Of a DNA stretch of 63,372 nt, positions 5,101 through 50,397 are shown piece after piece. Under the pieces are notes generated by a model. It was not told where the DNA came from and ran no database searches. It saw only the letters and a list, made by a program, of their open reading frames with translations. A program made the position numbers and the translations under genes. The DNA comes from Acidobacteriaceae bacterium (GTDB lineage: Bacteria; Acidobacteriota; Terriglobia; Terriglobales; Acidobacteriaceae): NCBI GenBank assembly GCA_003166855.1, contig PMUM01000052.1, positions 1 through 63,372 of the forward strand. The letters are read 5' to 3'. Positions within the stretch are counted from its first letter, which is position 1, and the number at the start of each line of letters is the position of its first letter.

Positions 5101-5135
5101 GGAAGCCGGTAGCTGGAAGCTGGAAGCTGGTAGCG
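5101..5135 (+). repeat. Period-7 degenerate repeat tract (5 units)
   Basis: Five consecutive 7-nt units of the form GGAAGCT/GGTAGCT (GGAAGCC, GGTAGCT, GGAAGCT, GGAAGCT, GGTAGCG) start two bases after the htpX stop. It is one of several period-7 arrays in this window that abut gene ends. Confidence 0.8.
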
Positions 5136-5180
5136 AGGAGCCGCAGGGAACCAGGTTCGCGGCCCCGCTGACTGCTGCCT

Positions 5181-6173
5181 CTATTTCGCCCAGCCGAGGC
5201 CGTCGGCTCCTTTGCCTGCGTCGATGAGCTTCTCAGTTTTCCATGTTGCGAGGTTGACAGCGGCGACCTGGCCGGTGCCCATGCAGGACACGAAGGCGAC
5301 CTGGCCGTCGGGACGGATGAGAATCTCCTGCGGAGATTTCGCCACGTTCACCGTGCGCGCGAGCTGGAGCTTGTCGAGATCGACGACGGCGATGACGTTC
5401 TTCGATGGGATCGCAACCAGCAACCAGCGGCCGTCGTGCGTGGCCGCCGCGCCGTAGCCCATGCCGGGCAGATCGACCCAGGTTTTGAGTTTGTTGGCGG
5501 CTGCGTCGATGACGGCGAGGCGCGGCTGCGCAACATCCGAAGTGAAGACGAGCCGGTCGTCGCGCGAGATGGCGATGCGCTGGATCTCTCCGGCCACCGG
5601 GATCACGGCGACGGTCCTGCGTCCCACCATGTCGAGCACGGAGACGGTGCCTGGCCCAACGTTGGCGGTGTAGCCGAGCTTGCCGTCGTGGGAGAGCGCG
5701 AGCATGTGCGATTCTTTCTGGCCGGTAGGGATTTTGCCGACGATCTTCAGCGTGGCCGGGTCGACGATGGTGATGGCGTCGTCGAGTTCGGTGGTGACGT
5801 AGAGCAGGCCGCTGGCGGGATCGAGCACGGGGAGGTGGGGGCGGACGCCGTGGCCGAAGTCGACTACGCCGGTGACCTGTTCGATGCCGAGATCGATGAC
5901 GAGGAGCTTGTTGCCGTCGATGCCGGGCTTGCCCACGCCGGAATTGCCGTAGATGGGCAGGAATGCCCGGTGGCCATCGGACGATGCGGCGATTTCATGA
6001 CCCCACTGACCGGGGATGTCTTCGGCAATGGTCGATACCCGCGTGCCCGCGGCTGGGTCGATGAGGCTTACGGTGCGATCGCTTTGATTGGCGACGAGCA
6101 GCTTCTGTGCGGCGGCGCCGGCGGTGATAAATGTAACAATTGCAAGCACAAATACAGTCGTTCGTTTGTTCAT
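5181..6173 (-). CDS. YVTN-family beta-propeller repeat protein, secreted
   Basis: A 330-residue exported protein. The ATG at 6171-6173 opens a signal peptide (MNKRTTVFVLAIVTF, ending AGAAA). The mature chain is built of repeated propeller blades with the signature of YVTN/Lactonase-like proteins (LYVTTELDDAITIVD, TANVGPGTVSVLD, VFTSDVAQPRLAVID). Such proteins form seven-bladed propellers and are found as surface or periplasmic binding proteins; a specific ligand or enzymatic activity cannot be inferred. It is divergently transcribed from the membrane protein gene at 6268, the two starts being 94 nt apart. Confidence 0.85.
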   Translation of the reverse strand: MNKRTTVFVLAIVTFITAGAAAQKLLVANQSDRTVSLIDPAAGTRVSTIAEDIPGQWGHEIAASSDGHRAFLPIYGNSGVGKPGIDGNKLLVIDLGIEQVTGVVDFGHGVRPHLPVLDPASGLLYVTTELDDAITIVDPATLKIVGKIPTGQKESHMLALSHDGKLGYTANVGPGTVSVLDMVGRRTVAVIPVAGEIQRIAISRDDRLVFTSDVAQPRLAVIDAAANKLKTWVDLPGMGYGAAATHDGRWLLVAIPSKNVIAVVDLDKLQLARTVNVAKSPQEILIRPDGQVAFVSCMGTGQVAAVNLATWKTEKLIDAGKGADGLGWAK

Positions 6174-6267
6174 AGCCGCCACTATATCGCGCTCCCCCGC
6201 TGCACTGCCACCTGATGGGCGCGGGTCTGGCTGGCCGCGGCGCGCCGATGGCTGTACCCTTTCCTGC

Positions 6268-6756
6268 ATGAAGACTCTGCTGCGCACCATCGTGTGGCTC
6301 GCCCTGGTGGTCTGGCTGGGCGGGCTGCTGTTCTTTCCGTTCACTGCTTTCGCCGCATTCAGTACGCTCACTGACACCCATGCCGCCGGCACGATCGTGG
6401 CGAAGTGCCTCGGCGTGCTCCATCATGAGGGGTTCATTGCGGGCGCGGTGATCGTGCTGGTGCTGGGCATTGGCTATTTCCTGCGCAGTTTTCGCATGAG
6501 CACGGTTTTGCTGGGCATCGTGGTCACGCTGCTGATGCTCGGCTGCACGGCGTGGTCGCAGTACCGCATCATTCCGCAGATGGAGCGCGACCGGATCGCG
6601 GCGGGCGGAGCGATCGACGCGGTCCCGAAGACCGATCCGCGGCATGTGGACTTCGATCGCCTGCATCATGTCTCCACCGATGTGGAGGAGGCCGTGATGG
6701 TCGGAGGGTTCGTTCTGCTGATTTTGCTGGCGCGGGATTTTTTAGTTTTTGGCTGA
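6268..6756 (+). CDS. DUF4149/TMEM205-like membrane protein
   Basis: A 162-residue protein with four predicted membrane helices (about 7-30, 48-66, 74-90 and 142-160). The pattern of WLGGLLFF in the first helix, a conserved HHEGF-like turn and an H-rich segment (RHVDFDRLHHVST) before the last helix fits the DUF4149 family. The ATG at 6268 directly precedes the first helix; a longer in-frame extension upstream would run through the divergent promoter and is rejected. Function unknown. Confidence 0.75.
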   Translation: MKTLLRTIVWLALVVWLGGLLFFPFTAFAAFSTLTDTHAAGTIVAKCLGVLHHEGFIAGAVIVLVLGIGYFLRSFRMSTVLLGIVVTLLMLGCTAWSQYRIIPQMERDRIAAGGAIDAVPKTDPRHVDFDRLHHVSTDVEEAVMVGGFVLLILLARDFLVFG

Positions 6757-6775
6757 GAGTGCTTCGAGGCCGCCG

Positions 6776-7171
6776 TTAGTCGTCGCCGGCGTTCTCTGCC
6801 AGCGCTGCCGCTACTGCGATGTTCTTCACGAGATCCGCGGGCACGCCGTGGCGCTGCTGCAGGTATTCCGGGCTGTTCCATGAGAGCCACACGGCTCCCT
6901 CGCTGTCTTCGGAGACGAGAATTTTCAGCGGCAGATCGATGGCGATGCTGGGCGCAGCGAGCATGACCGGCGTGCCGCCTGCTGGATTGCCGAAGATCAG
7001 CAGTTTGGTCGGGGGCATCTGCATACCGGCCTTTTGCGCCTCGCCGCTGTGATCGACGAGCGCGAATAAAGTCACGCCCTTGGCCTGCAGCAGGTTCTCC
7101 AGCCGCATTACGGTCTCATCGACCGAGTGCTGACTTTGCCGGCTCACAATTCCGTTTTCCGTTTCGACCAC
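6776..7171 (-). CDS. DUF302 domain protein
   Basis: A 131-residue cytoplasmic-looking protein. The GTG start at 7169-7171 is chosen because a near-perfect GAAGGAGG ribosome site sits five bases upstream, removing 15 residues from the longest reading frame. The sequence shows the DUF302 pattern: SVDETVMRLENLLQAKGVTLFALVDHSGEA, then a PTKLLIFGNPAGGTPVM strand and a conserved LPLKILVSED segment. The DUF302 fold is a small alpha/beta protein of unknown biochemical role, often next to redox or stress genes. It is convergent with the gene at 6268. Confidence 0.88.
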   Translation of the reverse strand: MVETENGIVSRQSQHSVDETVMRLENLLQAKGVTLFALVDHSGEAQKAGMQMPPTKLLIFGNPAGGTPVMLAAPSIAIDLPLKILVSEDSEGAVWLSWNSPEYLQQRHGVPADLVKNIAVAAALAENAGDD

Positions 7172-7271
7172 GGCGACCTCCTTCAATGCACACGAGAAAA
7201 GGATGCGCGAACCCACGATCCGGCGTCAGCCTCGCGTACAAAAATTAACAAGCCGGAGTTCCGATCGCCGG

Positions 7272-7697
7272 CTACTTCGCGGGCGAATCCTTCACGGGCA
7301 CGATCGTCATCTCGGGAAACTCGATTCCCTTGTGCCCGTCGCGCCCCTCCACCATGGCGTTCATCTTGTCCCAGTACGCCTGAATGTCGGGCGGGACGTT
7401 GTCCGGGATGCCGTGTGCGCGCCAGCTCAGAATCTCTACCACGATAGGTTTGCCGTTTTCTTCGCCGCGCAGCAGCACGTGCGGTGTGGGCATGACCATG
7501 TCACGCTCACGCAGCGCGGCCCAGTAGTCCGGCATCATCTTCACGAAGGCGTCGATCTGCCCGGGTTTTACGCGGAAGGTGGCCATCACGGTTTCCGGGG
7601 TATCCGGAGCTGCGTCCTGCGGGATCGCCGCGGGCGCCAGCGTCATGGTCAGCACGGCCGCCGCCGCGGCCGCGAGAATTTGTCTGCCGTATTTCAT
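7272..7697 (-). CDS. Small secreted protein, dimeric alpha/beta-barrel-like
   Basis: A 141-residue protein with a clear signal peptide (MKYGRQILAAAAAAVLTMTL, cleavage near PAA-IPQ). The mature part (TVMATFRVKPGQIDAFVKMMPDYW) resembles the ferredoxin-like strand-helix unit of antibiotic-biosynthesis-monooxygenase/NIPSNAP-type domains; this is a weak, pattern-based resemblance. Its ATG overlaps the stop of the VOC gene (shared ATGA at 7694-7697), so the two are translationally coupled and probably controlled by the MarR operator upstream of the VOC gene. AGGAGAAG provides the ribosome site. Confidence 0.8.
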   Translation of the reverse strand: MKYGRQILAAAAAAVLTMTLAPAAIPQDAAPDTPETVMATFRVKPGQIDAFVKMMPDYWAALRERDMVMPTPHVLLRGEENGKPIVVEILSWRAHGIPDNVPPDIQAYWDKMNAMVEGRDGHKGIEFPEMTIVPVKDSPAK

Positions 7698-8104
7698 ACA
7701 CTCTTCTCCTCTTCGTGGTTGCGGGACACTTCCGACATCAGCGCCAGAGTGTTGCCCGCCGGATCTTTCAGGGTCGCGAGCCAGAGGTCGTGACTCTTCA
7801 TGCGCGCGACCAGGTGCGGCTCCTGCTCGAAATGTACAGCTTTCTCTTTGAGCGCTGCGTGTGCCGCCTGAATGTCGGGTACACGAAAATACAGGATTGT
7901 CCCGCTCGTCACTGTGGGGTGCTCACTGGTCCCGATCAGAAGCCGGATAGTCCCACACTGAAAAAACGTCATAACGCCTGCATCGAAGAGGAATTTCATT
8001 CCCAGCACGTCACGGTAGAAGGTCTTTGCTGTTTCCTGATTGTCGACGGTAAGCGCGATCTGGCCGATCTCGTCCAGGTGCACTGTCCCAACGCTGCTTT
8101 CCAT
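7694..8104 (-). CDS. VOC-family (glyoxalase/bleomycin-resistance fold) protein
   Basis: A 136-residue protein with two beta-alpha-beta-beta-beta units. The motif IGQIALTVDNQETAKTFYRD near the N-terminus and DPAGNTLALMSEV near the C-terminus are diagnostic for the VOC fold. Metal ligands cannot be fixed from sequence alone, and members range from glyoxalases to dioxygenases and antibiotic-binding proteins. The start lies 17 nt from a perfect inverted repeat shared with the divergent MarR gene, suggesting that it is the MarR-regulated effector gene. Confidence 0.88.
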   Translation of the reverse strand: MESSVGTVHLDEIGQIALTVDNQETAKTFYRDVLGMKFLFDAGVMTFFQCGTIRLLIGTSEHPTVTSGTILYFRVPDIQAAHAALKEKAVHFEQEPHLVARMKSHDLWLATLKDPAGNTLALMSEVSRNHEEEKSV

Positions 8105-8120
8105 GATCGTCTCTCCATTT

Positions 8121-8146
8121 CATTAGCTGAGCTAATGATTTATAAT
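8121..8146 (+). promoter_or_regulatory. MarR-type operator and -10 box between divergent genes
   Basis: CATTAGCT-G-AGCTAATG at 8121-8137 is a perfect inverted repeat with 8-bp arms, the size expected for a MarR dimer. It is followed by TATAAT at 8141-8146, a consensus -10 for the plus strand 18 nt before the marR ATG. The repeat lies between the two divergent starts (8104 and 8165), so one bound dimer could repress both transcripts. Confidence 0.8.
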
Positions 8147-8164
8147 GGAGCCAGACGAGAGCAA

Positions 8165-8605
8165 ATGTCAAGCGAGGCGCGAATGAGGCCGGAACAGACT
8201 GCGGAACAGATACACTCCGCGGCCATTCATCTGCTGCGGCGGCTGCGGCAGGTGGACGCGGCGAGCGGTTTGAACAGTCCGCGGCTGTCGGCACTGTCGG
8301 TGATTGTGTTTGCGGGCCCGCTGACGCTGGGACAACTGGCCGACGCGGAGCAGGTGAAGCCGCCGACGATGACGCGCATCGTGCATGCTCTGGAGGCGAA
8401 GGGGTTGGTGAGGAAGATCGCCAATCCGGAGGACCGGCGCACGATTCATCTGGCCGCCACGATGAAGGGGAAGCGCCTGCTGCTTGCGGCGAGGCGGCGG
8501 CGCATTGGGCCGCTCGCCGACGGGATCGGGAGGCTTTCGCACGGCGAGCAAGAGACGCTGCACACGGCCATGGCGATCCTCCTCGGACTGGTCCGCGAGC
8601 TTTGA
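8165..8605 (+). CDS. MarR-family transcriptional regulator
   Basis: A 146-residue winged-helix repressor. The recognition region is clear: LTLGQLADAEQVKPPTMTRIV forms the helix-turn-helix and LVRKIANPEDRRTIHLA the wing with the family-typical DxR. An alternative ATG at 8183 would shorten it by six residues and has a slightly better ribosome site (GCGAGG). Family knowledge: MarR proteins usually autorepress and release DNA on binding phenolic or other small ligands. Divergent from the VOC gene across a palindromic operator, and 81 nt upstream of an ABC transporter pair on the same strand, which may be a second target. Confidence 0.9.
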   Translation: MSSEARMRPEQTAEQIHSAAIHLLRRLRQVDAASGLNSPRLSALSVIVFAGPLTLGQLADAEQVKPPTMTRIVHALEAKGLVRKIANPEDRRTIHLAATMKGKRLLLAARRRRIGPLADGIGRLSHGEQETLHTAMAILLGLVREL

Positions 8606-8686
8606 TGCTGGATTCATCGTCAACTCGGGAACCGGAGGGGCCAAAACTCCGTACGAGGCTTCAGCACGAAGGGTGAGGTCGCCAGG

Positions 8687-9571
8687 TTGAAGCTATCCAT
8701 CGACAACGTTGGCAAGTGTTATGGCGGGAAGTTCTGGGCTCTGCGGCGCTTCAGCCTTGAGCTGAAGCCAGGAGTGCTGGGATTGCTCGGACCGAACGGC
8801 GCGGGGAAGACGACGCTGATGAGCGTGCTGGCGACGATCACGCGCGCCAGCGAAGGCAAGGTGACGTGGAACGGCACGGATCTGGCGGCCGATCCGAACC
8901 AGCTGCGCGCGGTGCTCGGGTATTTGCCGCAGGATTTCGGCGTTTATCCCAACCTGAAGGCGCAGGAATTTCTTGAATATCTGGCCGCGGTGAAGGGACT
9001 CGACGCGGCGGCCGCGCGACGGCGCATCGATCAGCTGCTGAATGTCGTCAACCTGTCCGATGTGCGCACGCGTCCGCTGGGTGGATTCTCCGGGGGCATG
9101 AAACAGCGGGTGGGCATTGCGCAGGCGCTGCTCAACGATCCGCAGTTGCTGATTGTCGATGAGCCCACGGCGGGACTGGACCCGGAGGAGCGGGTTCGCT
9201 TTCGCAATTTGCTCTCGGAGCTGTCGGGCGAGCGGATTGTGATTTTGTCGACGCACATTGTTTCCGACGTGGAGGCGACGGCCACTGACATTGCGCTCAT
9301 CTCGAACGGCAGTTTGGTGGCGCATGCGCCGCCGGAGGAGCTGCTGCGCAGAGTGGAAGGGCGCATCTGGGAGTGGGTGATTCCCAGCGCCGATCTGAAC
9401 GCGGTGAAGCAGGTCTACCGGGTGAGCAGCACGATGCGGCGCAGCGATGGTGTGCACGTGCGCGTGATCACCGCGGAGCCGCCCGCGGGCGCGCAGCCCG
9501 TCTCGCCGACGCTCGAGGATGCGTATCTCGACGCGCTGTCGACGTATCGGGCGGCGGGGTTGGCCGCGTGA
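8687..9571 (+). CDS. ABC transporter ATP-binding protein
   Basis: A 294-residue nucleotide-binding subunit. Walker A GPNGAGKTT is near residues 36-44, the Q-loop is YLPQDFG, the signature FSGGMKQR, Walker B LLIVDEPTAGLD and the H-loop STH. The C-terminal tail of about 80 residues is typical of exporter-type (CcmA/NatA-like) ATPases. Translation probably begins at TTG 8687, after a GTGAGG site. The stop overlaps the GTG of the permease (GTGA), so the two subunits are coupled. Substrate unknown. Confidence 0.93.
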   Translation: MKLSIDNVGKCYGGKFWALRRFSLELKPGVLGLLGPNGAGKTTLMSVLATITRASEGKVTWNGTDLAADPNQLRAVLGYLPQDFGVYPNLKAQEFLEYLAAVKGLDAAAARRRIDQLLNVVNLSDVRTRPLGGFSGGMKQRVGIAQALLNDPQLLIVDEPTAGLDPEERVRFRNLLSELSGERIVILSTHIVSDVEATATDIALISNGSLVAHAPPEELLRRVEGRIWEWVIPSADLNAVKQVYRVSSTMRRSDGVHVRVITAEPPAGAQPVSPTLEDAYLDALSTYRAAGLAA

Positions 9572-12035: not shown

Positions 12036-12039
12036 GACA

Positions 12040-12074
12040 GGATATAGGGGATAGGGTGCAGGGCGCAGGGGCAC
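12040..12074 (-). repeat. Period-7 degenerate repeat tract (5 units)
   Basis: Read on the plus strand: GGATATA, GGGGATA, GGGTGCA, GGGCGCA, GGGGCAC. Five 7-nt units end five bases before the GTG assigned to the prenyltransferase gene, replacing a normal ribosome-binding site. Confidence 0.7.
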
Positions 12075-12102
12075 CCTCGTGGGGCGAGGGTGCCGAGGCC
12101 GA

Positions 12103-12852
12103 TTACTTTCCAGGTTTCTCTTTGCCGCCGTTGGCGACCTCCAGATCGTTGGTGACGCTGAAGACACCGGGAACGGTGTTGGCCTGGATGCCGGCTGCGT
12201 CCTTCTGCGACTGAGTGTCCACGGTGCCGTAGAGAGTCACGTGGCCGTTCTCTACCTGAATGCGGATCGGCTTCGCCGGATCGATGAGGTACTGGTTCAG
12301 CATCGGGAAGCTGTAGACCGCGCGAAAGACCTGGCGGCGGATGCGGTCGTCGTTCGGAGAAACCGGATCGACCTGAATGTTGTCGATGAGGTCGCGAACG
12401 CCTTTGGTGTTGGCCACGATGGCGACAGCGTCAGACGCATCGACGGGACCGTAGGCATGACCGCCGAGTGTGGCGACGCCGTTCTGCACCTGCACGGTGA
12501 TGGCGTCGAACGCCGTGGTTCCGTAGCCGACCATGTCGTAGGTGATGGCCTTCAGCAGTTTTTCCTGGAGCTGCTGATCGGGAACCTCGGCGCCGGCAAC
12601 TTCGATGTCGTTGCGAACCGCGGTGACACCTTTGACGTGGTGGACTTTCTGATCCGCGTTGATCTTGTTTGCTACGAGGTCAACGGTTCCGGTCAGCGTG
12701 ACAACGCCGTTCTCGACCGACGCCTGAATGCCTTTGAAGCGCGACGCGCTGAGGGCTTTCTGAACGCTCGCCTGCACGTCGGAATCGCCTTGCGCAAAGA
12801 CCGCGGGAACAGCAAGAGCCGCGGCAAGAATGAAAAGCAGTGCTTTCTTCAT
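12103..12852 (-). CDS. Periplasmic BON-domain protein
   Basis: A 249-residue exported protein. The ATG at 12850-12852 follows GGGAGA and begins a textbook signal peptide (MKKALLFILAAALAVPAVFA). The mature chain holds three BON modules (about 24-92, 95-170 and 172-245), each with the hallmark 'VxNGVVTLxGTV' strand: ENGVVTLTGTVD, QNGVATLGGHAY and ENGHVTLYGTVD. BON domains bind phospholipid or membranes and occur in OsmY/DolP-type envelope-stress proteins. It sits between a prenyltransferase and the outer-membrane assembly operon, in the same direction, with a 216-nt gap upstream. Confidence 0.9.
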   Translation of the reverse strand: MKKALLFILAAALAVPAVFAQGDSDVQASVQKALSASRFKGIQASVENGVVTLTGTVDLVANKINADQKVHHVKGVTAVRNDIEVAGAEVPDQQLQEKLLKAITYDMVGYGTTAFDAITVQVQNGVATLGGHAYGPVDASDAVAIVANTKGVRDLIDNIQVDPVSPNDDRIRRQVFRAVYSFPMLNQYLIDPAKPIRIQVENGHVTLYGTVDTQSQKDAAGIQANTVPGVFSVTNDLEVANGGKEKPGK

Positions 12853-13068
12853 AGTTTTCTCCCAGGCTGTCTCCTGGAATCTTTTTGGGGATTTCCGGCC
12901 GGGATTGTCCTCGCCGGGGAGACTAGCCTTCGGTCTATTCAGACACGGGAACAGGGCTTTTGGATGCGTGAAATGCGAGAAAATTCGCGCCAAGACGGCA
13001 ATTTTTGAGTGGCACCGAACGAATGTTCTGAAGGGATTGCGGGCGCGGGCCGGGGCAACCGCGTGGCG

Positions 13069-16000
13069 CTAGTGATAGCGCCGGTGGAGGCGGAAAATGA
13101 GCGAGAAAACGCCCGATTCATCGCGCACCGCGACGACGGAAAAGTCGGGCGTGACGCGCCACTCACCCTGAATCAACTGCTCTGCTGTTGAATTGACGTT
13201 GGTGGCATAGGTAAGGGTAGCGTTCTTCGAGATGGGCTCTTCGACAGTGATGCGCGCGGTCGCGTTGCCGACGCCGCTGACGAAGGTGGGATCGATACGC
13301 ACGCTGCCGCCGCCGAAAAGTTTTTGAATCCGATTGCTGAGGGTTGCATTGAGGGCGCCGCCGAGCAGCGAGTCCGCGGTGGAGTTGACGCCGGCCTGTT
13401 GCTGCTCAGAGCTGTAGATCTGCTGCTCCTCCTGGGTGCGGCCCATGGCCAGCAAGGAGAAGATGTCCTGCTCGGAAAGCGGGGGCTCGGAGCGGAAGGT
13501 CGGATTCAGTTTGGTGGTCGGGCCCTGCAGGGCAATGGTGACGGTGTAGTTCTCCACGGTGGTAGTGGCGGTTAGATCGAGCACGGGCTGGATGCGCACG
13601 GGATTGGTGAAGTAGATCTCGCCGTGCTGCAGCTCGAATTTCTCGCCGTTGAAGGTGGCTCGGCCGTCGGTGATGGTGACGCGGCCCAGAACCGTGGGCT
13701 GGGCGAGGGTGCCGCGGACAGCGAGGTCGACGTTGCCGGCCAGGCGGGCGAAGGAATTCTGGAAATTCAGCGAGGGCGCGGAAGTGATGCGAATATTGAG
13801 CCGCACTTTGTTAGTGGGCGACGCGGGATTGGGGGGCAGCGAAACGCCGCTGCTGTTGGCGAGCGAGGCAAAATCGACGTCGGGATTGACGGAGAATCCG
13901 GTGAGCATCACGTGGCCGCTGACGAGCATGCTGGCCTGGTTCCCCTGGACGTGAATCTGCGCACTGGCCGTGGAGGTGACGCCCTCGGGGTAGCGAATGC
14001 GCACATCTTTGGCGTCGGCGGTGAGGTCGGCGTAGAGGCCGTGATGATAGGTGGCGAAGCCGCCGAGCTTGATGAGGCCGCCGCCGCTGTAAGCGGTGAC
14101 GTCTTTGAAGTCGAGCCGGTCCTGATCGAAGACCAGCTCGCCGTTCATGCGGCTGAGGCCGTTGACGTAGTCTTCGAGCGCGACGTTGACGTTGGTGAAC
14201 TTCACGTTGCCGGTGAGGTCGGGGTTGGGCACCGTGCCTTCGGCGCTCACGGTGAAGTCCACGTGGCCCGAGGAGACGATGTCGGTATCGAGGGTCTGCG
14301 CGAGCGCCATGTTGACCGATCCTTTGGCGCTGCCGTGAATCGGCCTGGGATTGTCGAAGACCCCGATCGATCCCTCGGTGCGGAGATCGGTATCGGGGCC
14401 GACGATGTGCAACTCGTCCATGCGGAAAGTGCCGTCGCGGAGGGTTGCATGCACCTGGCCGTCGCTGTGGATGGGCACGTCTTCCAGAGTGATGGCGAGC
14501 TGGCTGAGGCGGACATCGCCGTTCAACCGCCTCGGAGTGCGAAGCGGACCGGAGACAGTCACCGATCCGGCGATGGATGAGCTGCCGCGGATGCCGGTGA
14601 CGCTGAAGGTGCGCAACAGTGGATCGATGTTGAACTGGTCGATGTTGAGGCTGGCGTTGGTTTCGTAGTCGCCGGTGAGCTGCGTTTCGCCTTTCAGGTT
14701 CAGCGTGGATGCATTCATGTGCGCGCTCATCTGCATTTCGAGCGCGCGGCCCTGGGTGTGGGCGTCGGCATCGACGTAGCCTTTGAATTCGCGTGCGAGC
14801 TCGAGGTTGCGGACGTGCATGCTGGCGGTGACTGAGGGCTCTTCGATGGTGCCGCTACCCTTTGCTTCAAAGTCCACCGTGCCCAGCACCGGGTACTGCT
14901 CGTTCTGGAGCAGCCGGATGTGGGCCAGCTCGAAGCCGCTGCCTTGCAGGTTGAAGTGGGCCGTTTTCGCTGTGAAGTTGTAGCCGGCGTCGCCGCTGAT
15001 GTGGCCGCCATCAACCTCGAAGAGGAGATGATCCGCGTCCAATTCCCGGCCGCGGAACTGCACATCGCTGGTGAGCGAGCGATAAGTCTCGCTGTAGATG
15101 ACGCCGCCGGTGACGCTGACCTGGCCGGTGCCGTTGAGGTCGCCGATGGTGCCGTCGGTTTGGGCTTGGAGGTTCAGAATTCCGGAAACCGGATAGCTCT
15201 TGCCGGTGAGCGCGATCCATTGTGCGATGTCGGCGTTCTTTACCTGGACGCGGGCGTGAATCGTGGAGGTATCGGCGAAGAGATCCTTCGGGGCATTCGG
15301 ACGTCCGTGCACATCGCCGGAAAACTGAATGGTGGTCTTGCCCTGGACCAACGTGCCGAGGCTCACCGAGAGCGATCCGAAATTATAAGCGGCGTCGGTG
15401 GTGAGGCTGTCGAAGTGGAGATTGGCGGCTGCCTGCGTCGATAGCGGCGTTGGGCCTTGCGGAGCGATATTGAAGTCGGTCGCCTGCAGGTGGCCCTGGA
15501 AGTTGGGTGCATCGAGGCTGCCGGTGACTGTGCCATGGAACTGCGCCTCGCCGTGGAGCTCGGCGGGGATGGGCGTGGGTTGGCCAGGAGCGGAGATGCC
15601 GAAAGAGGCGAGCATGGGATTGAACTCGGCGACGTTGCGGGTGACGAGGCTCGCGTCGAGCTGCGACTTGCGTGTCATTGGATAGACGCCCAGGCTGCCA
15701 GTCATCTGAATTTCGGAACCGGGCGTGTGGATGTCGAAGGTGCGGATGAGGACGGAGCCGCTGCGATTCGTGTACTCCGCTTCGACCACGCCGTTGACGG
15801 GGACTTCATCGGGGCTGGGCGTGTGCGGCGGAGCCAGGGTGACCTTGACCTCGCCGATGAGGTTGTCGGGGTTGCCGGTCCAGTTCACATTGGCGGTGCC
15901 TGCGGCGGAGGTATCGAAGCCGAGGCGGCGGAAACGCTTCGGAGCAACGGTGTCAAGGAGCGAGTCGAGGGTGAATCCTGCGAGTTGCGTGCGGATGGTG

Positions 16001-28184: not shown

Positions 28185-28259
28185 AGCCAGTAGCCAGTAG
28201 CCAGTAGCCAGTAAATCGACGCAGATCTTCCCGCTGTCCGCTATACGCTATACGCTGTT
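28185..28259 (+). repeat. Two adjacent period-7 repeat tracts between cysK and cysE
   Basis: AGCCAGT is repeated four times without change at 28185-28212, six bases after the cysK stop. A second 7-nt unit, CGCTATA, follows at 28239-28259 (CGCTATA, CGCTATA, CGCTGTT), ending just before the cysE ATG. Together they fill most of the 84-nt spacer and leave no ordinary ribosome site for cysE. Confidence 0.88.
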
Positions 28260-34841: not shown

Positions 34842-34944
34842 AGTGGCTAGTGATTAGTGGTTGGTAATCTCTCTGGGTCCTTCCGGAGGCTGAAGTCCAG
34901 AGGGTACTGGATTTCTAGCCACAAACCACGAATCACTAGCCACT
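34842..34944. repeat. Inverted pair of period-7 repeat tracts
   Basis: The left arm begins AGTGGCTAGTGATTAGTGG (34842), two bases after the regulator's stop; the right arm (34915-34944) is its inverted copy. Over the first 21 nt, 20 pair. Each arm is made of 7-nt units (AGTGGCT, AGTGATT, AGTGGTT). Together they could fold into a long hairpin with a loop of about 50 nt, and may act as a transcript end for the two-component operon. Confidence 0.8.
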
Positions 34945-39476: not shown

Positions 39477-39483
39477 GACAACA

Positions 39484-39492: not shown

Positions 39493-39520
39493 GAAATCAG
39501 TGTGATTTCCAGAACGAGCC

Positions 39521-39570
39521 ATGTGGGGAAGCCGCCCCGGCTGTCCGGTTGGGCAAGCCCGACAGCTTCG
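39521..39570 (+). repeat. Dispersed GC-rich palindrome, degraded copy
   Basis: ATGTGGGGAAGCCGCCCCGGCTGTCC repeats the element at 38721 but has lost bases in the left arm and loop, so the stem is imperfect. The pair flanks the VapBC-like genes as direct repeats. Confidence 0.75.
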
Positions 39571-39663
39571 TTGGTCTTTGTAGGAGCCAGTGGTGTCTAT
39601 ATTTTGACGGTGATTTAGGAGATCGTAGATTCTTTCTCCGTGGAAAAACTTACGCTCAACAAT

Positions 39664-40554: not shown

Positions 40555-40562
40555 TTCGATCC

Positions 40563-42554: not shown

Positions 42555-42560
42555 GACGGA

Positions 42561-42595
42561 AGCTCTTAGCAGTTAGCTCTTGGCTCTTAGCTGGA
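42561..42595 (-). repeat. Period-7 degenerate repeat tract (5 units)
   Basis: On the plus strand: AGCTCTT, AGCAGTT, AGCTCTT, GGCTCTT, AGCTGGA. Five units start six bases from the uvrB initiation codon, occupying the place where a ribosome-binding site would be expected. Confidence 0.85.
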
Positions 42596-42644
42596 AACCT
42601 TAACTCCACTAGAGGACAATCTCTGTCCTCAATGTAATGAGCTC

Positions 42645-42696
42645 GTGTGGGGACGGGCGCCTTCGCCCGTCCGGCCAAGCGCAGCGAGGCCAGGTT
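42645..42696 (+). repeat. Dispersed GC-rich palindrome (GTGGGGAC family)
   Basis: GTGTGGGGACGGGCG opens a perfect 9-bp stem (42651-42659 with 42664-42672, loop CCTT), followed by GGCC-AAGCGCAGCGA-GGCC. The layout and loop match the copy at 38721 with compensating base changes in the stem. A small hairpin (GAGGACA/TGTCCTC, 42612-42630) precedes it. Confidence 0.8.
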
Positions 42697-42785
42697 TTCG
42701 CCGGCAGCACCACAGAACCGACTTTCGCCGACAAAGAATCCTTCCATTATAACGGGAAAGGTGAGCGAAGGTTATGCGAACGCGC

Positions 42786-44654: not shown

Positions 44655-44731
44655 AGCGGCGCGCCCATACAGATATAACCCCTGCCGCTCAAAGTCAAAT
44701 GGAATCTAAGGATGCAAGAACTTGCAGACCC

Positions 44732-47260
44732 CTATCCGACCGCTGGCCGCAGTTCGACCTTCTTCGTCGTAATCGTCACCTGCGTGGACGGCAACTTCGG
44801 CCGCGGATACGGCTCTGTATAAGCCTCCACCGTGATCGTCCCCGGAGTGCGGCTGGCCTGCACAATTACTTGAGCGAGCCCGTTGAATAGGCTGCGCTTG
44901 GGCGCTTTGTCGGACTCCTGACAGTTGGGATCGCCGTTGCCCACGCCGATCAGCGCGCCCTCGCCAGTGACTTTAAAGCTGATCAAGTTCGCCGCCGTGG
45001 GCAGTGCCCGTCCCGCACCGTCGAGCACTTCAACCTTCAGCACGGCTACATCCTCGCCGTCGGCGTTGATTGAGGTTCGGTCGGACGTGAGGCGGATCGA
45101 CTCCGGTTTGCCCGATGTCGTCTCACGTTTCTCAGTCAATACGACCTTACCATCTTTGGTGCCGCGCGCCTCGAGCACACCGGGCTCGAATTTTACCTGC
45201 CACTCCAGATGCGTCAGGGGCTGCACTTTTTGCGAGCCCTGGCTTTTGCCGTTGAGGAAGAGTTCCACCGAATCGAGATTCGAATGCACCCACACTGAGA
45301 TCGGCTCGCCCTCACGCCCGGACCAGTCCCAATGCGGAAACAGGTGCAGCACCGGCTCCGATCCCCACCATGCCTTGTAGTAATAAAAGTTGTCTTTGGG
45401 AAAGCCGCACATGTCGACAATGCCGAACTGCGAGTTGATCGAAGGCCACGCGTAGGGAGTGGGCTCGCCGCGGTAGTCGAAGCCGGTCCAGGCAAATCCC
45501 CCCGACAGCCATTCCCGAGTTGCATAGAACTTCCACCATTCCTCCGCCAGTTGCGACCAGTCCGTATGGTTCAGATCGTACGCGCTGACCCAGTTACGCA
45601 ACTTGTCGGTCGAATAAATTCCGCGTGTGGAAACCGTGCTGGCTGTCTCCGAACCCACGCTTGGAGTTTTCGGATGCGCCTTGTGCCATTCATCGTGAAC
45701 TTTGAGGTTGTAGTTAAAGCCCATGACGTCGAGTTGCTCGGGAAAGTGGGTTTCGAACGCGGTATTGATCGCAGCGGTACAAAGCCGCGTGGGGTCAAGT
45801 TCGTGCGTTCGCGCAATCATGTCGTCAATGACGCGCATGCCCTGGGGCTGAAACATCATCGTCCACTCCTCGTTGCCCATGGACCACAAAATAATTGCCG
45901 GCGAATTGCGGTAGCGTTTCACCATCGCCTCAAGCTGCGCCATGCCCTCCGGATTCGAACTCATCAGCCGCGTTTCGCACATCATCATCATCCCCAACCG
46001 GTCGCAAGCCTCCACCCACTCCGGCGTCGGCATATTGTGCGACGTCCGCACTGCATTGCCGCCCATATCTTTCAAGACGCCCACCCTGTACCACTGCATC
46101 CGGTCGGGCAGAGCCGCACCCACTCCGGCGTGATCATGATGATTGCAGGTGCCTTTGATCTTTACCGACTTGCCGTTGAGGAAGAATCCCTTATCAGCGT
46201 CCCACGCGATTGTGCGTACGCCAAAGCTGACGCGCTCCGCATCGCGCGCCTTGCCGCCCACCTCGACGGTGACGACCGCCGAATAAAGATTGGGATTTTC
46301 CGGCGACCACAGCGCTGGATTGGTAATCGAAGCACTGGCCGTAAAGCTGGCCGATCCGTCGGCAGACACGGATTCCGGCGCCGAATCTGCAGTTCCCACC
46401 ACTTTTCCCGCCGCATCCAGAATCTGCCAACGCACTCGACAGGTCTCCGCTTGCTGACCCTGATTTTGCACCATGGTCCCCAGACTCAGCGTCGCCCCAT
46501 TAGCCTTTACTGAAGTCCGAACCGTGCTGTCCCAATTTCCCAAGTGAAGCGCATCGGTCTTCGTGAGCCACACATGCCGGTATATGCCCGCGCCTTCATA
46601 GAACCAGCCGTCGCCAAAGCTGGCGTCCATGCGCACCATCAGATAGTTCTTGCCGCCGTAATTCAGAAAGTCGCTCACGTCGAAGCGAAAGGGCGCGTAC
46701 CCGTTATCGTTGCGCCCAATGAAATATCCGTTCAAAAACACCAGCGCGCTGCGAAAAGCGCCGTCAAACTCCACCGTGATGCGCCGTCCGCTGTCTTCTT
46801 TCGGAATGTCGAAGGTGCGCCGGTACCAGCCCACGCTGGTCTCAGGATACCGTCGCCCCAGCGGCTTGTAGCCGTGCGATTCCTCTTCGTCATCGCGCAC
46901 AAACGGCAACTCAACCGCCCAGTCGTGCGGCAAATTGAGCGAGCGCCATTTCGAGTCGTCAAATTTCTGTGTGGCAAACCAGAATTCTCCCGACTTGGCG
47001 AAGTCTCCCTGGCCTATCCCAAATCCCAAGTCGCGCAGCGGGTCGTTCGCGTGGCCCTGAAAAAACTTCCAGCCAAAGTCGAACAACAGATGCTCCCGCG
47101 GAGCCACCGCAGCCAGCGCCTCAGCCGACGCAGCGCCGGGATACCCCGCGAGCAGAGCGTGCGCGCGCCCCACCGACCCTGCGACCAGAGTTGACGCCGA
47201 GAGTGCAAGGCCAGAGCGAAGCAAATCGCGGCGGGTAAGGGAACGAAGAGGAGAATCCAT
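44732..47260 (-). CDS. Glycoside hydrolase family 2 beta-galactosidase-like, Tat-exported
   Basis: An 842-residue enzyme. A twin-arginine signal (SLTRRDLLRSGLALSAS) starts it, so it is exported folded. The GH2 jelly-roll, Ig-like and TIM-barrel domains follow: VNHHDHAG-type substrate loop (CNHHDHAGVG), acid/base Glu464 in SMGNEEW and nucleophile Glu538 in VGSETAST. C-terminal Ig-like domains (about 650-842) resemble DUF4982 plus an invasin-like module. GH2 enzymes release terminal beta-galactosides, mannosides or glucuronides; the exact sugar is not visible. It appears monocistronic. Confidence 0.92.
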   Translation of the reverse strand: MDSPLRSLTRRDLLRSGLALSASTLVAGSVGRAHALLAGYPGAASAEALAAVAPREHLLFDFGWKFFQGHANDPLRDLGFGIGQGDFAKSGEFWFATQKFDDSKWRSLNLPHDWAVELPFVRDDEEESHGYKPLGRRYPETSVGWYRRTFDIPKEDSGRRITVEFDGAFRSALVFLNGYFIGRNDNGYAPFRFDVSDFLNYGGKNYLMVRMDASFGDGWFYEGAGIYRHVWLTKTDALHLGNWDSTVRTSVKANGATLSLGTMVQNQGQQAETCRVRWQILDAAGKVVGTADSAPESVSADGSASFTASASITNPALWSPENPNLYSAVVTVEVGGKARDAERVSFGVRTIAWDADKGFFLNGKSVKIKGTCNHHDHAGVGAALPDRMQWYRVGVLKDMGGNAVRTSHNMPTPEWVEACDRLGMMMMCETRLMSSNPEGMAQLEAMVKRYRNSPAIILWSMGNEEWTMMFQPQGMRVIDDMIARTHELDPTRLCTAAINTAFETHFPEQLDVMGFNYNLKVHDEWHKAHPKTPSVGSETASTVSTRGIYSTDKLRNWVSAYDLNHTDWSQLAEEWWKFYATREWLSGGFAWTGFDYRGEPTPYAWPSINSQFGIVDMCGFPKDNFYYYKAWWGSEPVLHLFPHWDWSGREGEPISVWVHSNLDSVELFLNGKSQGSQKVQPLTHLEWQVKFEPGVLEARGTKDGKVVLTEKRETTSGKPESIRLTSDRTSINADGEDVAVLKVEVLDGAGRALPTAANLISFKVTGEGALIGVGNGDPNCQESDKAPKRSLFNGLAQVIVQASRTPGTITVEAYTEPYPRPKLPSTQVTITTKKVELRPAVG

Positions 47261-47415
47261 TCTGTGCCTCTCGAGGAAGACGAAATTGGAAGCCGGTCCC
47301 GCGCTCAGCCGCGCACGGGACTGAGCATTATAAAGCCGGGTAGCCCAGAGTGGAGAAAAGGCATGTTTAGCTTTTCAAGTGCGCAGAGGCAGATACGAAA
47401 ACACCCAAAGCCAGT

Positions 47416-48372
47416 CTACTTCTCTTCCTTTATTTCGCCCATGCCCACAATCTTCGATGAGGTGCGGAATTTCTTGTAGTCGCGATACTCCTGATCGCCG
47501 TCGATGTTGTAGCCCTTGAACAACGCGACCCGCGCATCCACCTTGAAGGTCACGTGCCGCGGCAGCCATACTTCATCGTTGACCCGCGTCTGCTCGAGCA
47601 TGACGCGCGTCCCTTTGTGGATGCGCGCCAGCACCCATCCGAACGACACCGTATCAATCGCTTCGATATCCATTTTCGCGAGTTGCAGGTCGCCCTTGTC
47701 GATCCACACGCGGCCGCGGAATTTGGAGAGCAGCTTCGCCTCCTTCATCTGCGGCTCAAAGCCGGGTCGCGGTGCGCCATCGATCACCCACGCCTCGCGC
47801 CCGTCCACCTCCTCCGTTCCGACCAGTTTGAAGTTATAAGCCTCCGCTACCTCGCGCACGAACTTGCGGCTATCTTCTCGTTCTTTGACCGCTTTCTCTT
47901 CCCGTTTCTTGCGTTGTTCTTCCGATTCGTTCTTGCGCTTGTCGATGATCTTCTGGATCTTTTCTTCTTCCTTGGCCGCTTCCTTGGCGTCGAGCGGCTT
48001 ATCGTCCTTGGCGATGAGGCGCTGCACCTGCTCGCCATAGATTTCCAGAACTTCGTAGGTCTTCACTTCGGTGGATTTGGTCTGCCCTTTGCCGTCGAGT
48101 TTGTTCTCGACCTCGCGGTCGATGTAGGTATAGTCGCGCTGCCGCTTGTCGTTTTCGATGTCCTTGTCCGCCACGACGCGCAGCAACTGCCGCATCTGCT
48201 CCTGGGACAGTTTGCCATCGGGCCCGGTCGTGAGATCTGGGATCGTTTCCGCGGAGCTAACTTCAGGCTGAGACTTTTCTTGCGACGCCGCTGCAGGGGC
48301 GGACTCCTGCTGGCCGAACGCCGGCAGGTAGATGAGCAGGGAAAGGATGAGAGCGCGGCCGCGAGACCTCAT
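47416..48372 (-). CDS. Exported LolA-like fold protein with charged coiled coil
   Basis: A 318-residue protein with a signal peptide (RALILSLLIYLPAFG). Residues 110-170 are extremely charged and probably coiled coil (AAKEEEKIQKIIDKRKNESE). The C-terminal 140 residues show the beta-strand pattern of outer-membrane lipoprotein-sorting-like domains (AYNFKLVGTEEVDGREAWVI, FRGRVWIDKGDLQLAKMDIEA, WLPRHVTFKVDARV). Such proteins are common in Acidobacteriota; whether it carries lipoproteins or lipids is not known. Confidence 0.78.
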   Translation of the reverse strand: MRSRGRALILSLLIYLPAFGQQESAPAAASQEKSQPEVSSAETIPDLTTGPDGKLSQEQMRQLLRVVADKDIENDKRQRDYTYIDREVENKLDGKGQTKSTEVKTYEVLEIYGEQVQRLIAKDDKPLDAKEAAKEEEKIQKIIDKRKNESEEQRKKREEKAVKEREDSRKFVREVAEAYNFKLVGTEEVDGREAWVIDGAPRPGFEPQMKEAKLLSKFRGRVWIDKGDLQLAKMDIEAIDTVSFGWVLARIHKGTRVMLEQTRVNDEVWLPRHVTFKVDARVALFKGYNIDGDQEYRDYKKFRTSSKIVGMGEIKEEK

Positions 48373-48430
48373 GACGTTAATCTAACCCCTTAGACGCCTT
48401 GAAGTTCCGCTGGGAAGCAAGGATGGCAGG

Positions 48431-48805
48431 TCAGATCTCATCGCTCGCGAGAACCGACTGCTTCACCGCCAACTGGCTGCAGGTGCGCCCGATGACATCC
48501 TGGGCGGAACTGGTTTCGACGAACTGGAAACCGTAGCGGAATGCGCTTCGTTGGCGAACCAGTGCCAGCAGTTCTACGTCGCCCAGGGGCAGGGCAAACT
48601 CCAGGCGCACTATTTCACCCACCGGAACTTCCTCTCGCAGAATGGCCGAAACTCCCGACTCGCTGATGTCGACGGTGTCGCCTCGAACCACAGTAGCGCC
48701 GCGCGGGTATACACGAATGCCGACTTCCAGCTTGAACCGGGGATGGCGGCGAGCTTCCACAGATTCCTGAGTCTGGTCCGCGCCGAATGGGCTGCGCACT
48801 TCCAC
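48431..48805 (-). CDS. PilZ-domain protein (c-di-GMP-binding candidate)
   Basis: A 124-residue protein from GTG 48803-48805, chosen because CGGGAG lies nine bases upstream and longer frames run into the neighbouring gene. The PilZ motifs are visible: RRHPR (RxxxR-like) followed by VVRGDTVDISESGVSAI (DxSxxG) and a closing beta-barrel strand (AFRYGFQFVE). The presence of both motifs supports c-di-GMP binding, in contrast to the PilZ-like protein at 35204. It lies downstream of the transglutaminase-like gene on the same strand. Confidence 0.82.
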   Translation of the reverse strand: MEVRSPFGADQTQESVEARRHPRFKLEVGIRVYPRGATVVRGDTVDISESGVSAILREEVPVGEIVRLEFALPLGDVELLALVRQRSAFRYGFQFVETSSAQDVIGRTCSQLAVKQSVLASDEI

Positions 48806-48957
48806 GCCTATGGTCTCCCGGACCTGAGGTGCGCCGGGCCCGGGTGGAACGGACTCGCTCTCCAGATTGCGTCCAACCGCGGCGTGAAAGCAAGCGCAAA
48901 GGTCCTTCGGGATGGATCGGCAGCGTGGACCGGCAACTTTAGCGTAGCCCCGGAAAT

Positions 48958-49590
48958 TCAGTCCCTGACCTTGTGCGCTTTGCCTAAACACTCCGCCTGG
49001 AAGAGCCGCTCGTCCACGCGGTGCAGCCGCTTTTCCTGCGCCTTCGTCATCAGCGAATAATGCTTGATGTCGAACAGATGATAGACGATGAACCACACCG
49101 GCTGGTCGGTAGTCATCCAGTTCTGTCGGTCGAAGCGTTTCAAGTTCACCGGACCCGAGTAGCGGCGCAGAGTTCGTTCGCGCCGCAGGTTGAAGTAGGC
49201 GTTGAAGTAGCTCAGCGCCAGCTCGCGCAGCGTGCGATAGACCGGTTCGCGCCAGCGGCATCCGGTGTAATTCGACTTGGCGACAGCGCCCCAGCAGCCG
49301 TCCTGGCGGTAAATGGCGATGACGTGGTCGGTGTCGTGTTCGGCTTCGAAATCCAGCAGCAGCGGAGGATATCCGTTCGCGCGCAAGGCCGCCGCCGCGA
49401 AGATCGCTCCTTCCAGGCAATGCGACGATTCTTCCGCCAGCACCTTCCGCGGCGACCACGCCGTGTCTTCCAGGTGATACGGCATGTCATCCAGAAATTT
49501 CTGGATGCCGTATGGATTCTTCATGCTGCGCAGCTTGCGCAGTTCTTTGGGGGTGAAGCCGGGAGTCAGGCCAGAGTGGTTATCGGTCAT
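48958..49590 (-). CDS. Transglutaminase-like cysteine protein
   Basis: A 210-residue soluble protein. Cys58 in SSHCLEGAIFAAAAL and His89 in DTDHVIAIYR, followed by WGAVAKSNY, reproduce the Cys-His-Asp/Asn arrangement of the transglutaminase/papain-like fold found in bacterial peptidase or amidase relatives. No signal peptide. The C-terminal 80 residues (FNLRRERTLRRYSGPVNL) are basic and unrecognised. Substrate and reaction are not known. Confidence 0.75.
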   Translation of the reverse strand: MTDNHSGLTPGFTPKELRKLRSMKNPYGIQKFLDDMPYHLEDTAWSPRKVLAEESSHCLEGAIFAAAALRANGYPPLLLDFEAEHDTDHVIAIYRQDGCWGAVAKSNYTGCRWREPVYRTLRELALSYFNAYFNLRRERTLRRYSGPVNLKRFDRQNWMTTDQPVWFIVYHLFDIKHYSLMTKAQEKRLHRVDERLFQAECLGKAHKVRD

Positions 49591-49639
49591 TGGGTTTTGG
49601 CGTTTCGCATTCGTGCTGGTGCAGAAATGTCTTGGAGAT

Positions 49640-50347
49640 TCAGCGCTTCGATGCCGAAGTAAAAACGGTGCCGACCTCGTGTGGTTGATCCACGAGCACG
49701 TCAGGAGGTTCGTCGTCCAATGTGTGCGTGGCGAAGCCGTAGGTCACGCCAATCGTCCACAACCCGGCGTTGCGCCCGGTACGCACGTCCACATGAGAAT
49801 CTCCGACGATCGCGGCCTGCTCCGGACGCACTCCGCTCTCCTCCAGCAACTTCCGCGCGCCCTCGGGATCGGGCTTCTTCGTGGCAAAACTGTTGCCGCC
49901 GTAAATCTGCGTGAAGAATGGTCCCAGCCCGAGCGCCTCGACAATTGCCCGCGAGGGAATCACTGGCTTGTTCGTGAGTACGGCCATCTTGCGCGGTGTG
50001 CCGTTCCCGGATCTCTGAACGGCTGCCAGCGCCTCGGTGACTCCCGGATACACCGTCGTGTGATCCAGCTTGTGCTCCCGGTAGTAGGAAAGAAAAAATT
50101 CCAGCCCTTTGCGAATCAGGGCCTCGTCGACCTTTTCGCCGCCCAGCGCCCGCTGAATCAAGATGGGCGCGCCATCGCCCACGTAACTGGCGATCACTTC
50201 GTCGGGCAATTCCGGCCGCCCGATATGGCGCAGCGCGGCGTTAACGGAATGGACCAGGTCGAGGCGCGAGTCAATCAGCGTGCCATCCAGGTCGAAGATC
50301 ACTAGTTGGATCGACTGCGGGTCGAAAGCGCGGCGGGTCCGAATCAT
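49640..50347 (-). CDS. HAD-superfamily phosphatase (phosphoglycolate phosphatase-like)
   Basis: A 235-residue HAD-IA hydrolase. ATG 50345-50347 is chosen (GGAAG upstream) over a longer frame through repeats. Motif I VIFDLDGTLIDS carries the nucleophile Asp and acid/base Asp; motif II is AVLTNK; motif III Lys is in ATKKPDPEG; motif IV is IVGDSHVDV. The helical cap fits the phosphoglycolate phosphatase (Gph) subgroup, which clears 2-phosphoglycolate from DNA repair, but related enzymes act on other small phosphates. Confidence 0.9.
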   Translation of the reverse strand: MIRTRRAFDPQSIQLVIFDLDGTLIDSRLDLVHSVNAALRHIGRPELPDEVIASYVGDGAPILIQRALGGEKVDEALIRKGLEFFLSYYREHKLDHTTVYPGVTEALAAVQRSGNGTPRKMAVLTNKPVIPSRAIVEALGLGPFFTQIYGGNSFATKKPDPEGARKLLEESGVRPEQAAIVGDSHVDVRTGRNAGLWTIGVTYGFATHTLDDEPPDVLVDQPHEVGTVFTSASKR

Positions 50348-50362
50348 CTGCTTCCAGAATAA

Positions 50363-50397
50363 AGCACTCAGCACGCAGCCGTCAGCACTAAGGGGTG
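50363..50397 (+). repeat. Period-7 degenerate repeat tract (5 units)
   Basis: AGCACTC, AGCACGC, AGCCGTC, AGCACTA, AGGGGTG: five 7-nt units starting 15 nt upstream of the phosphatase start codon. Confidence 0.8.

What the first reader, a model, noticed from the sequence alone, without database searches (positions are those of the whole stretch)
5101..50397. Period-7 degenerate arrays abutting gene ends at six loci
Arrays of 7-nt units are seen at 5101-5135 (GGAAGCT type), 12040-12074 (GGGNNNA type), 28185-28212 (AGCCAGT x4) plus 28239-28259 (CGCTATA), 34842-34869 with an inverted partner at 34915-34944 (AGTGGCT), 42561-42595 (AGCTCTT) and 50363-50397 (AGCACTC). The unit sequence differs from locus to locus, but period, total length (about 35 nt in most) and placement are shared: each starts 2-16 nt from a start or stop codon (htpX, ubiA-like, cysK, RR, uvrB, phosphatase). 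Heptanucleotide repeats are known from cyanobacteria; a family defined by period and position rather than sequence is unusual and suggests a generating process (for example slippage plus divergence) or recognition of spacing.
Basis: partly seen in the sequence, partly recalled or inferred. Interest (0 to 1): 0.75.

Follow-up and report, generated by a model that had tools for sequence, protein, structure and literature searches.

The report
Seven-letter repeats marking gene ends
In some soil bacteria, short DNA tracts that repeat a loosely spelled seven-letter word sit right after one gene's stop and, facing the other way, right before the next gene's start; the two tracts agree in spelling at only some letters, which looks more like a site read in seven-letter steps than like copying slips, but what reads it is unknown.

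Summary
The arrays are real: besides multiples of 3, lag 7 (with 14) is the only clearly enriched lag in the window. In a 771 kb contig of a same-genus genome, lag-7 segments are 83 intergenic, 2 coding, 2 in a Markov control. The units are not unrelated: many read RGCYNYN (the Y strand), with families such as GTCGTYR and octads GTTTCANN beside them. In this genus Y arrays follow stops and their reverse precedes starts (contig: stop 18 Y, 1 R; start 0 Y, 18 R); pairs face each other 34:1. Other lineages reverse this. Orthologous ribosomal-protein spacers hold different families or nothing. Slippage does not fit: positions 6 and 7 are uniform within arrays, position 5 is not, and neighbours avoid sharing it. 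Facing arrays share dialect in 29 of 31 spacers (8.7 expected), yet the free positions do not match, so base pairing alone does not explain the main family. I favour tandem 7-bp sites for an unidentified factor; RNA hairpins and REP-like elements remain rivals. The layout closely resembles the published Xanthomonas GGGAATC heptads: a new variant of a known kind.

The parts
5097..5141 (.). array AGCCGGA AGCCGGT AGCTGGA AGCTGGA AGCTGGT AGCGAGG AGC, overlapping the TAG stop of a Peptidase_M48 gene; convergent neighbour on the - strand
12039..12070 (-). array AGGNNNN on + (CCCTRNN on the - strand), 6 nt upstream of a GTG start of a UbiA gene on the - strand
   Evidence: start codon read by eye
28185..28213 (.). 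perfect array AGCCAGT x4, 6 nt after the PALP (cysK-like) stop
28233..28256 (-). array CGCTATA type (AGCGTAT on the - strand), 6 nt before the ATG of a serine-acetyltransferase-like gene; orthologous places in named Acidobacteriaceae loci mostly carry CCCTGTA-type units here
34842..34865 (+). left (T-rich) arm AGTGGCT AGTGATT AGTGGTT, 2 nt after the response-regulator stop
34915..34944 (-). right (A-rich) arm, inverted partner of 34842; the pair folds with z -7.95
42561..42592 (-). array 6 nt upstream of the uvrB ATG (AGCTAAN units in uvrB sense); present in G004, G002, G001, G003, absent in G005
50363..50386 (-). array AGCACTC type, 15 nt upstream of a HAD-gene ATG; one difference in G004, decayed in G001, absent in G003

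Best explanation
The arrays are tandem 7-bp (in one family 8-bp) sites for a sequence-specific factor that reads in 7-bp steps, laid out as facing blocks between genes: one block after a stop, the other, inverted, before the next start. SHOWN here: period, intergenic and gene-end placement, fixed polarity within the genus, contiguous units, one dialect (positions 1, 6, 7) per array and per facing pair, freedom at position 5 with neighbours avoiding identity there. INFERRED: that a factor exists; that it is a DNA-binding protein able to occupy neighbouring sites, as the Omega/ParB protein of plasmid pSM19035 does on its 7-bp repeats; that several dialects mean several readers or one tolerant reader; and that binding marks or insulates the ends of genes or transcription units. 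No protein was identified.
For: Within-array versus between-array identity per position in 106 arrays.81/.70 (1).75/.74 (4).27/.28 (5).79/.54 (6).87/.47 (7). Adjacent units share position 5 in 62 of 290 cases against 77.8 +- 4.9 under order shuffles, P 0.0013. Facing arrays have the same dialect in 29 of 31 spacers, 8.7 expected, while positions 4 and 5 match no better than in arms swapped within a dialect (0.71 vs 0.69, P 0.29; 0.23 vs 0.25, P 0.74) (34 pairs alike). Facing order 34:1, GTCGTYR 12:1, octads 4:0. Polarity: contig C16 stop 18 Y/1 R, start 0 Y/18 R; own-bin sample 5/0 and 0/3; Peptococcaceae genome 16 of 17. Precedent for 7-bp contiguous sites, direct and inverted, with four contiguous sites needed for full activity: PMC9499535 (passages).
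Against: No reader was found and none was searched for. Several dialects coexist in one genome, which needs several readers or a tolerant one. GTCGTYR position 6 does match between facing arms (0.76 vs 0.53, P 0.011), as pairing would predict. Polarity is reversed in the lineage of window 1-34 kb (stop R 4, start Y 1) and in G087 (stop R 3, start Y 3, 7 of 13 arrays with no gene end within 130 nt). Arrays are scarcer in divergent (promoter) spacers, 7 of 89, unlike a classical operator. Orthologous spacers are empty in some species, so the arrays are dispensable. R blocks are purine-biased at position 5 while Y blocks are not (P 2e-7), which a symmetric DNA reader does not predict. Positions 2 and 3 are fixed by my search pattern, and many arrays come from related genomes.
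Confidence: 0.42

Rival explanations
1. Intercistronic RNA stem-loops: the block after the stop pairs with the inverted block before the next start and tunes translational coupling, processing or stability of the message.
For: Stem scores >=12 in 74 of 438 spacers against 1 shuffled; of 60 stems >=13, 30 have 7-periodic and 8 have 8-periodic arms. Strong folds: window pair z -7.95, an S8-L6 spacer z -6.68. Co-directional spacers favoured, 62 of 333; r-protein operon 22 of 26 spacers against 65 of 475. Region before the start less accessible in stem spacers, 0.36 (n 49) vs 0.45 (n 72), P 0.004. GTCGTYR position 6 matches between arms. R blocks purine-biased near starts.
Against: In the main family the free positions of facing arms do not match beyond dialect. 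No significant opening of the start region by a modelled terminating ribosome (P 0.13, 0.20). Four of six window places fold no better than shuffles (z between -0.83 and 0.76), a fifth at z -3.18. In the Peptococcaceae genome several arrays lie directly beyond terminator-like T-tracts (by eye). Period 7 is not needed for a stem.
Confidence: 0.25
2. REP- or REPIN-like mobile palindromic elements that insert at gene ends and spread, their arms happening to be built of heptads.
For: Empty and filled orthologous places; patchy occurrence, 88 of 297 Acidobacteriota genomes; a 31-base array identical at two places of the bin; number of arrays weakly correlated with number of Y1 transposase matches in 22 genomes (Spearman 0.44, P 0.042, not corrected for genome size).
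Against: No common sequence outside the units; loops of 3 to 131 nt. Unit strings differ between arrays at position 5 as much as at random. In the L24-L5 spacer the two arms flank a conserved stretch rather than entering as one block (by eye). No target-site duplication was tested.
Confidence: 0.2
3. Ordinary microsatellite slippage followed by divergence, as proposed for bacterial heptamers in general.
For: Unit number differs between species at the uvrB array (about 3 to 4, none in G005). Perfect or near-perfect arrays exist (28185; long ones).
Against: Units of one array are no more alike at position 5 than units of different arrays, and neighbours avoid identity there. It predicts neither polarity, facing pairs nor dialect matching.
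Confidence: 0.06

Closest known systems
GGGAATC and GGGGA(C/T)T heptameric repeats of Xanthomonas and Nostoc (PMC4692102; abstract and found passages)
   Same: Period 7, degenerate units, mostly about four units, intergenic, between aligned genes and under-represented between divergent ones, one strand within 50 bp after stops and the other within 50 bp before starts, 70 to 75 facing pairs per genome, length and sequence variation between related species.
   Different: Unit there is G-rich and was studied as G-quadruplex; here the units are RGCYNYN, GTCGTYR and others with no G runs, several families per genome, dialect matched between facing arrays.
TAACTGA direct repeats of marine Beggiatoaceae (PMC4679880; abstract and found passages)
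   Same: Period 7, intergenic, directly upstream of start codons, some in ribosomal-protein operons, patchy across phyla.
   Different: One unit per genome, essentially no inverted pairs (one in 170 sets), no array rule after stops.
parS heptads of plasmid pSM19035 bound by the RHH protein Omega (PMC9499535; found passages)
   Same: Contiguous 7-bp non-palindromic repeats in direct and inverted orientation; four contiguous repeats needed for full activity.
   Different: Plasmid partition sites over promoters, unit WATCACW; here gene-end arrays with other units and no known protein.
REP / REPIN elements with RAYT transposases (PMC3116915, PMC2817692, PMC3733652: search listings only)
   Same: Many extragenic copies, inverted pairs.
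   Different: No conserved palindrome seen here; arms are degenerate heptads.

Membership tests
intergenic heptameric repeats of the Xanthomonas GGGAATC kind | period 7, intergenic, not coding | tested here: met
   83 intergenic, 2 coding
intergenic heptameric repeats of the Xanthomonas GGGAATC kind | one strand after stops, the other before starts; facing pairs; few between divergent genes | tested here: met
   polarity reversed in two other lineages
intergenic heptameric repeats of the Xanthomonas GGGAATC kind | G-rich unit GGGANTN able to form a quadruplex | tested here: not met
   commonest units AGCTTCT, AGCTCTT, AGCTCTC, AGCTTTC (a pattern-based set)
slippage microsatellite | units of one array more alike than units of different arrays at all positions, neighbours most alike | tested here: not met
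   positions 4 and 5 not more alike; neighbours less alike at 5
pSM19035-type parS / Omega operator | unit WATCACW | tested here: not met
   read by eye: one AATCACT at window 34931-34937, neighbours differ
pSM19035-type parS / Omega operator | at least four contiguous heptads | tested here: inconclusive
   64 of 106 pattern-defined arrays have four or more units, 42 have three
pSM19035-type parS / Omega operator | bound by a ribbon-helix-helix protein | not tested
   no binding data; no candidate searched for
REP / REPIN | shared palindrome with a tag, moved by a RAYT (Y1) transposase | tested here: inconclusive
   Y1_Tnp matches in 21 of 22 genus genomes, weak correlation with array number; no shared palindrome was noticed; target-site duplications not tested

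The most novel reading that the evidence does not exclude
A cross-phylum boundary code: facing blocks of degenerate heptads whose exact word drifts as a dialect, while the period, the polarity relative to stop and start, and the agreement between the two blocks are kept because an unknown factor reads them in 7-bp steps. The heptads of Acidobacteriota, Peptococcaceae, Xanthomonas, Beggiatoaceae and cyanobacteria would be dialects of one kind of system.
Probability: 0.25. Interest if true: 0.88.

Novelty: new variant of a known kind. Interest (0 to 1): 0.68.

Why it matters
Heptameric intergenic repeats have been reported from several phyla and explained one by one as slippage, quadruplexes or translation signals. 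The split between matched and free positions, the dialect match of facing arrays without matching free positions, and the fixed polarity are not predicted by those accounts, and they make a direct test possible: which positions matter? The almost completely filled ribosomal-protein operon supplies many orthologous natural variants for it.

Tried and rejected
Slippage. Simple inverted duplication and pure stem selection for RGCYNYN. G-quadruplexes: no G runs in the common units. Translational coupling by constrained folding: start region less accessible, no significant opening by a terminating ribosome. The own-arm pairing (17.0 vs 10.4) and the per-position complementarity are biased, because stems were chosen for pairing; I rely. 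TACCCT before cysE as a -10 box of a leaderless start: an idea, not tested. Transposase link: weak. The reversed-pattern controls are not clean: some genomes have other periodic arrays that match them in numbers as large as or larger than the pattern. Octad pair test too small (4 pairs). Mrazek 2007 is not held and is known to me only through the two open papers. Cyanobacterial STRR details and the ribosome footprint used are recalled.
Full report
OBSERVATION. In the window, lag-7 segments scoring at least 10 number 6 against 0.45 in 20 Markov-1 simulations, at least 14 number 2 against 0; other enriched lags are multiples of 3 or of 7, apart from 3 segments at lag 16 against 0.9. Each array lies within 15 nt of a start or stop codon, given two start codons that I read from the sequence and that fit the Pfam domain limits.

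UNITS ARE RELATED. The arrays at 5097, 28185, 28233 (reverse strand), 42561 and 50363 are runs of AGCNNNN or RGCNNNN. In the window's own bin (6.94 Mb, 479 contigs) AGCNNNNAGCNNNNAGCNNNNAGC occurs 105 + 105 times, its reversed control 9 + 6; the exact AGCCAGT array of 28185, up to 3 mismatches, occurs nowhere else in the bin. All 36 same-genus genomes searched have at least one AGCYNNN(x3)AGC match, 1 to 302 each. In 61 stretches of the bin including the window (773 kb, six short ones all N) lag 7 gives 22 segments of at least 12 against 2 in one simulation, lag 8 gives 18 against 3; 14 of the 18 are GTTTCANN-type octads. That octad pattern occurs in 19 of 61 relatives, all of this genus.

GENOME-WIDE PLACEMENT. 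I used one contiguous 770,745-base contig of a same-genus genome (G018 contig 16, C16) with a home-made gene finder (614 genes, 85% coding). Lag-7 segments of at least 12: 83 intergenic, 2 coding, 2 in a Markov control; lag 8: 14, 1, 0. Of 501 spacers of 30 nt or more, 77 carry a lag-7 array: 62 of 333 co-directional, 8 of 79 convergent, 7 of 89 divergent; 68 of 103 arrays lie within 16 nt of a gene end, 38.7 expected for random placement in the same spacers. The contig begins with a tuf/S10/spc/alpha ribosomal operon; 22 of its 26 spacers carry a lag-7 or lag-8 array against 65 of 475 elsewhere (Fisher P 1.4e-14).

POLARITY AND PAIRS. Call the reading RGCYNYN the Y strand. In C16, 47 pattern-defined arrays: 1 coding, 46 intergenic, 9 of these over 30 nt from a gene end; of the rest 18 of 19 after stops are Y and 18 of 18 before starts are R. 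In the bin sample (15 arrays, 2 coding, 5 far) 5 of 5 and 3 of 3. In 472 co-directional spacers (C16 plus r-protein spacers of 12 other genomes, two of them outside the genus) Y arrays are nearer the stop 46:1, R arrays nearer the start 59:5, and where both occur Y comes first 32:1. Over all spacers facing order is 34:1, for GTCGTYR 12:1, octads 4:0. The rule is not universal. The lineage that includes the first 34 kb of the window is reversed (stop R 4, start Y 1), and so is G087, an Acidobacteriota genome of another family (10 of its loci, 13 arrays: stop R 3, start Y 3, 7 with no gene end within 130 nt). In a Peptococcaceae genome the 13 loci that hold all 16 matches gave 17 arrays, 16 of which follow the genus rule (ORFs instead of called genes); several sit directly beyond terminator-like T-tracts (by eye).

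TURNOVER AT ORTHOLOGOUS PLACES. In 13 genomes (not every spacer is covered in each; part of the printout was cut) the same r-protein spacer holds different families or none: L14-L24 has octad pairs in G004 and G002, TTGRGTAA-like arrays in G012, G003, G014, G005 and G018, and 11 nt in G011; L23-L2 has GTCGTYR in G018 and G003 but AGCTATC types in G022 and G011; S19-L22 is 10-12 nt in G035, G003, G011 and G005. Of 136 spacers of 35-300 nt, 54 have a stem of at least 12, 50 of them of heptad or octad families. The uvrB array has 4, 3, 4, 4 and about 3.5 units in window, G004, G002, G001 and G003 and is absent in G005 (counted by eye). The 50363 array differs by one base in G004, is decayed in G001, absent in G003, and could not be placed in G002; the 34842/34915 pair is absent in G002, while in G004, G001 and G003 the spacer is too different to compare.

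WHAT THE LETTERS SAY. In 106 arrays, identity within versus between arrays is .81/.70 at position 1.75/.74 at 4.27/.28 at 5.79/.54 at 6 and .87/.47 at 7; positions 2 and 3 are fixed by the search pattern. Adjacent units share position 5 in 62 of 290 cases, 77.8 +- 4.9 under order shuffles inside arrays, P 0.0013; position 4 shows 210 against 215.9, P 0.08. Copying of whole units does not give this. A first, stem-based look suggested strong co-variation of arms (own 17.0, swapped 10.4; position 5 at 0.48 against 0.26), but those stems were chosen for pairing. When pairs are chosen by unit pattern, the dialect (positions 1, 6, 7) agrees in 29 of 31 spacers, 8.7 expected, yet positions 4 and 5 agree no better than arms exchanged between spacers of the same dialect (0.71 vs 0.69, P 0.29; 0.23 vs 0.25, P 0.74; best register 0.90 vs 0.88 and 0.52 vs 0.52). 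Against this, GTCGTYR position 6 agrees beyond chance (0.76 vs 0.53, P 0.011), position 7 does not (0.55 vs 0.57). The simplest single account of the main family is a set of recognition positions shared by two facing blocks with one position left free, as for tandem sites of a DNA-binding protein. The parS heptads of pSM19035 show that such 7-bp arrays, direct and inverted, exist and that four contiguous repeats are needed for full activity (PMC9499535, passages). I give this 0.42.

RNA ALTERNATIVE. Predicted stems are strong where both arms exist (window pair z -7.95, S8-L6 spacer z -6.68), but four of the six window places fold like shuffles. The region before the start is less accessible in stem spacers (0.36 vs 0.45, P 0.004), and R blocks are purine-biased at position 5 while Y blocks are not (P 2e-7), which hints at a role near starts. 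A modelled terminating ribosome gives no significant opening (P 0.13; 0.20). I keep it at 0.25. A REP-like mobile origin (0.2) accounts for empty places and patchiness but not for the absence of a shared element sequence.

LITERATURE AND SPREAD. The Xanthomonas GGGAATC heptads share period, degenerate units, about four units, placement between aligned genes, the stop/start strand rule and facing pairs (PMC4692102, passages). TAACTGA repeats of Beggiatoaceae sit before start codons, some in r-protein operons (PMC4679880, passages). Hence a known kind. New, as far as nine searches show, are the non-G-rich dialects in Acidobacteriota (88 of 297 genomes match AGCYNYN(x3)AGC) and in 4 of 19 genomes of other phyla (one of the four mostly through long single arrays), the nearly filled ribosomal operon, the exchange of families at orthologous spacers, and the structure of matched and free positions.

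LIMITS. The bin is a draft with 6% contamination; gene ends come from a simple gene finder or ORFs; r-protein spacers and arrays are related by descent, so P values are optimistic; patterns pre-set part of the unit; there are no expression or binding data.

Noticed in passing
window around 34429: Two ancestries meet inside the response-regulator gene: downstream DNA is 88-94% identical to G004, upstream the same gene is only 53% identical in protein and 24.5-32.5 kb is syntenic at 75-82% DNA identity with Acidobacteriaceae contigs. Transfer or a chimeric contig.
   Followed up: partly
L284-L293 and L245, L24-L5 spacer: A conserved stretch CTCACG..ACCGGTA...CCGAAACCGTGAG before rplE in most of the genus genomes read, with the right-hand array lying inside it; possible leader structure (by eye).
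   Followed up: no
L092:5006-5120; L082:4079-4152, 12741-12818, 13526-13598; L075:13080-13196: Period-8 octads GTTTCANN in facing pairs, frequent in only some species of the genus.
   Followed up: partly
L103-L110, L113, L125, L140, upstream of the SAT-like gene: CCCTGTA-type heptads, often ending TACCCTG shortly before the start codon, in most named Acidobacteriaceae orthologues read.
   Followed up: no
r-protein spacers of several genomes: Other dispersed palindromes (TTCCTC..GGAATGACA; TCATCCTGAGCGAAGCGAAGGATCT; GGCGAGACGCC) share these spacers (by eye).
   Followed up: no
G000:C88:653-683 and G000:C171:12098-12128: An identical 31-base array at two places of the bin: a copied array or redundant contigs.
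   Followed up: no
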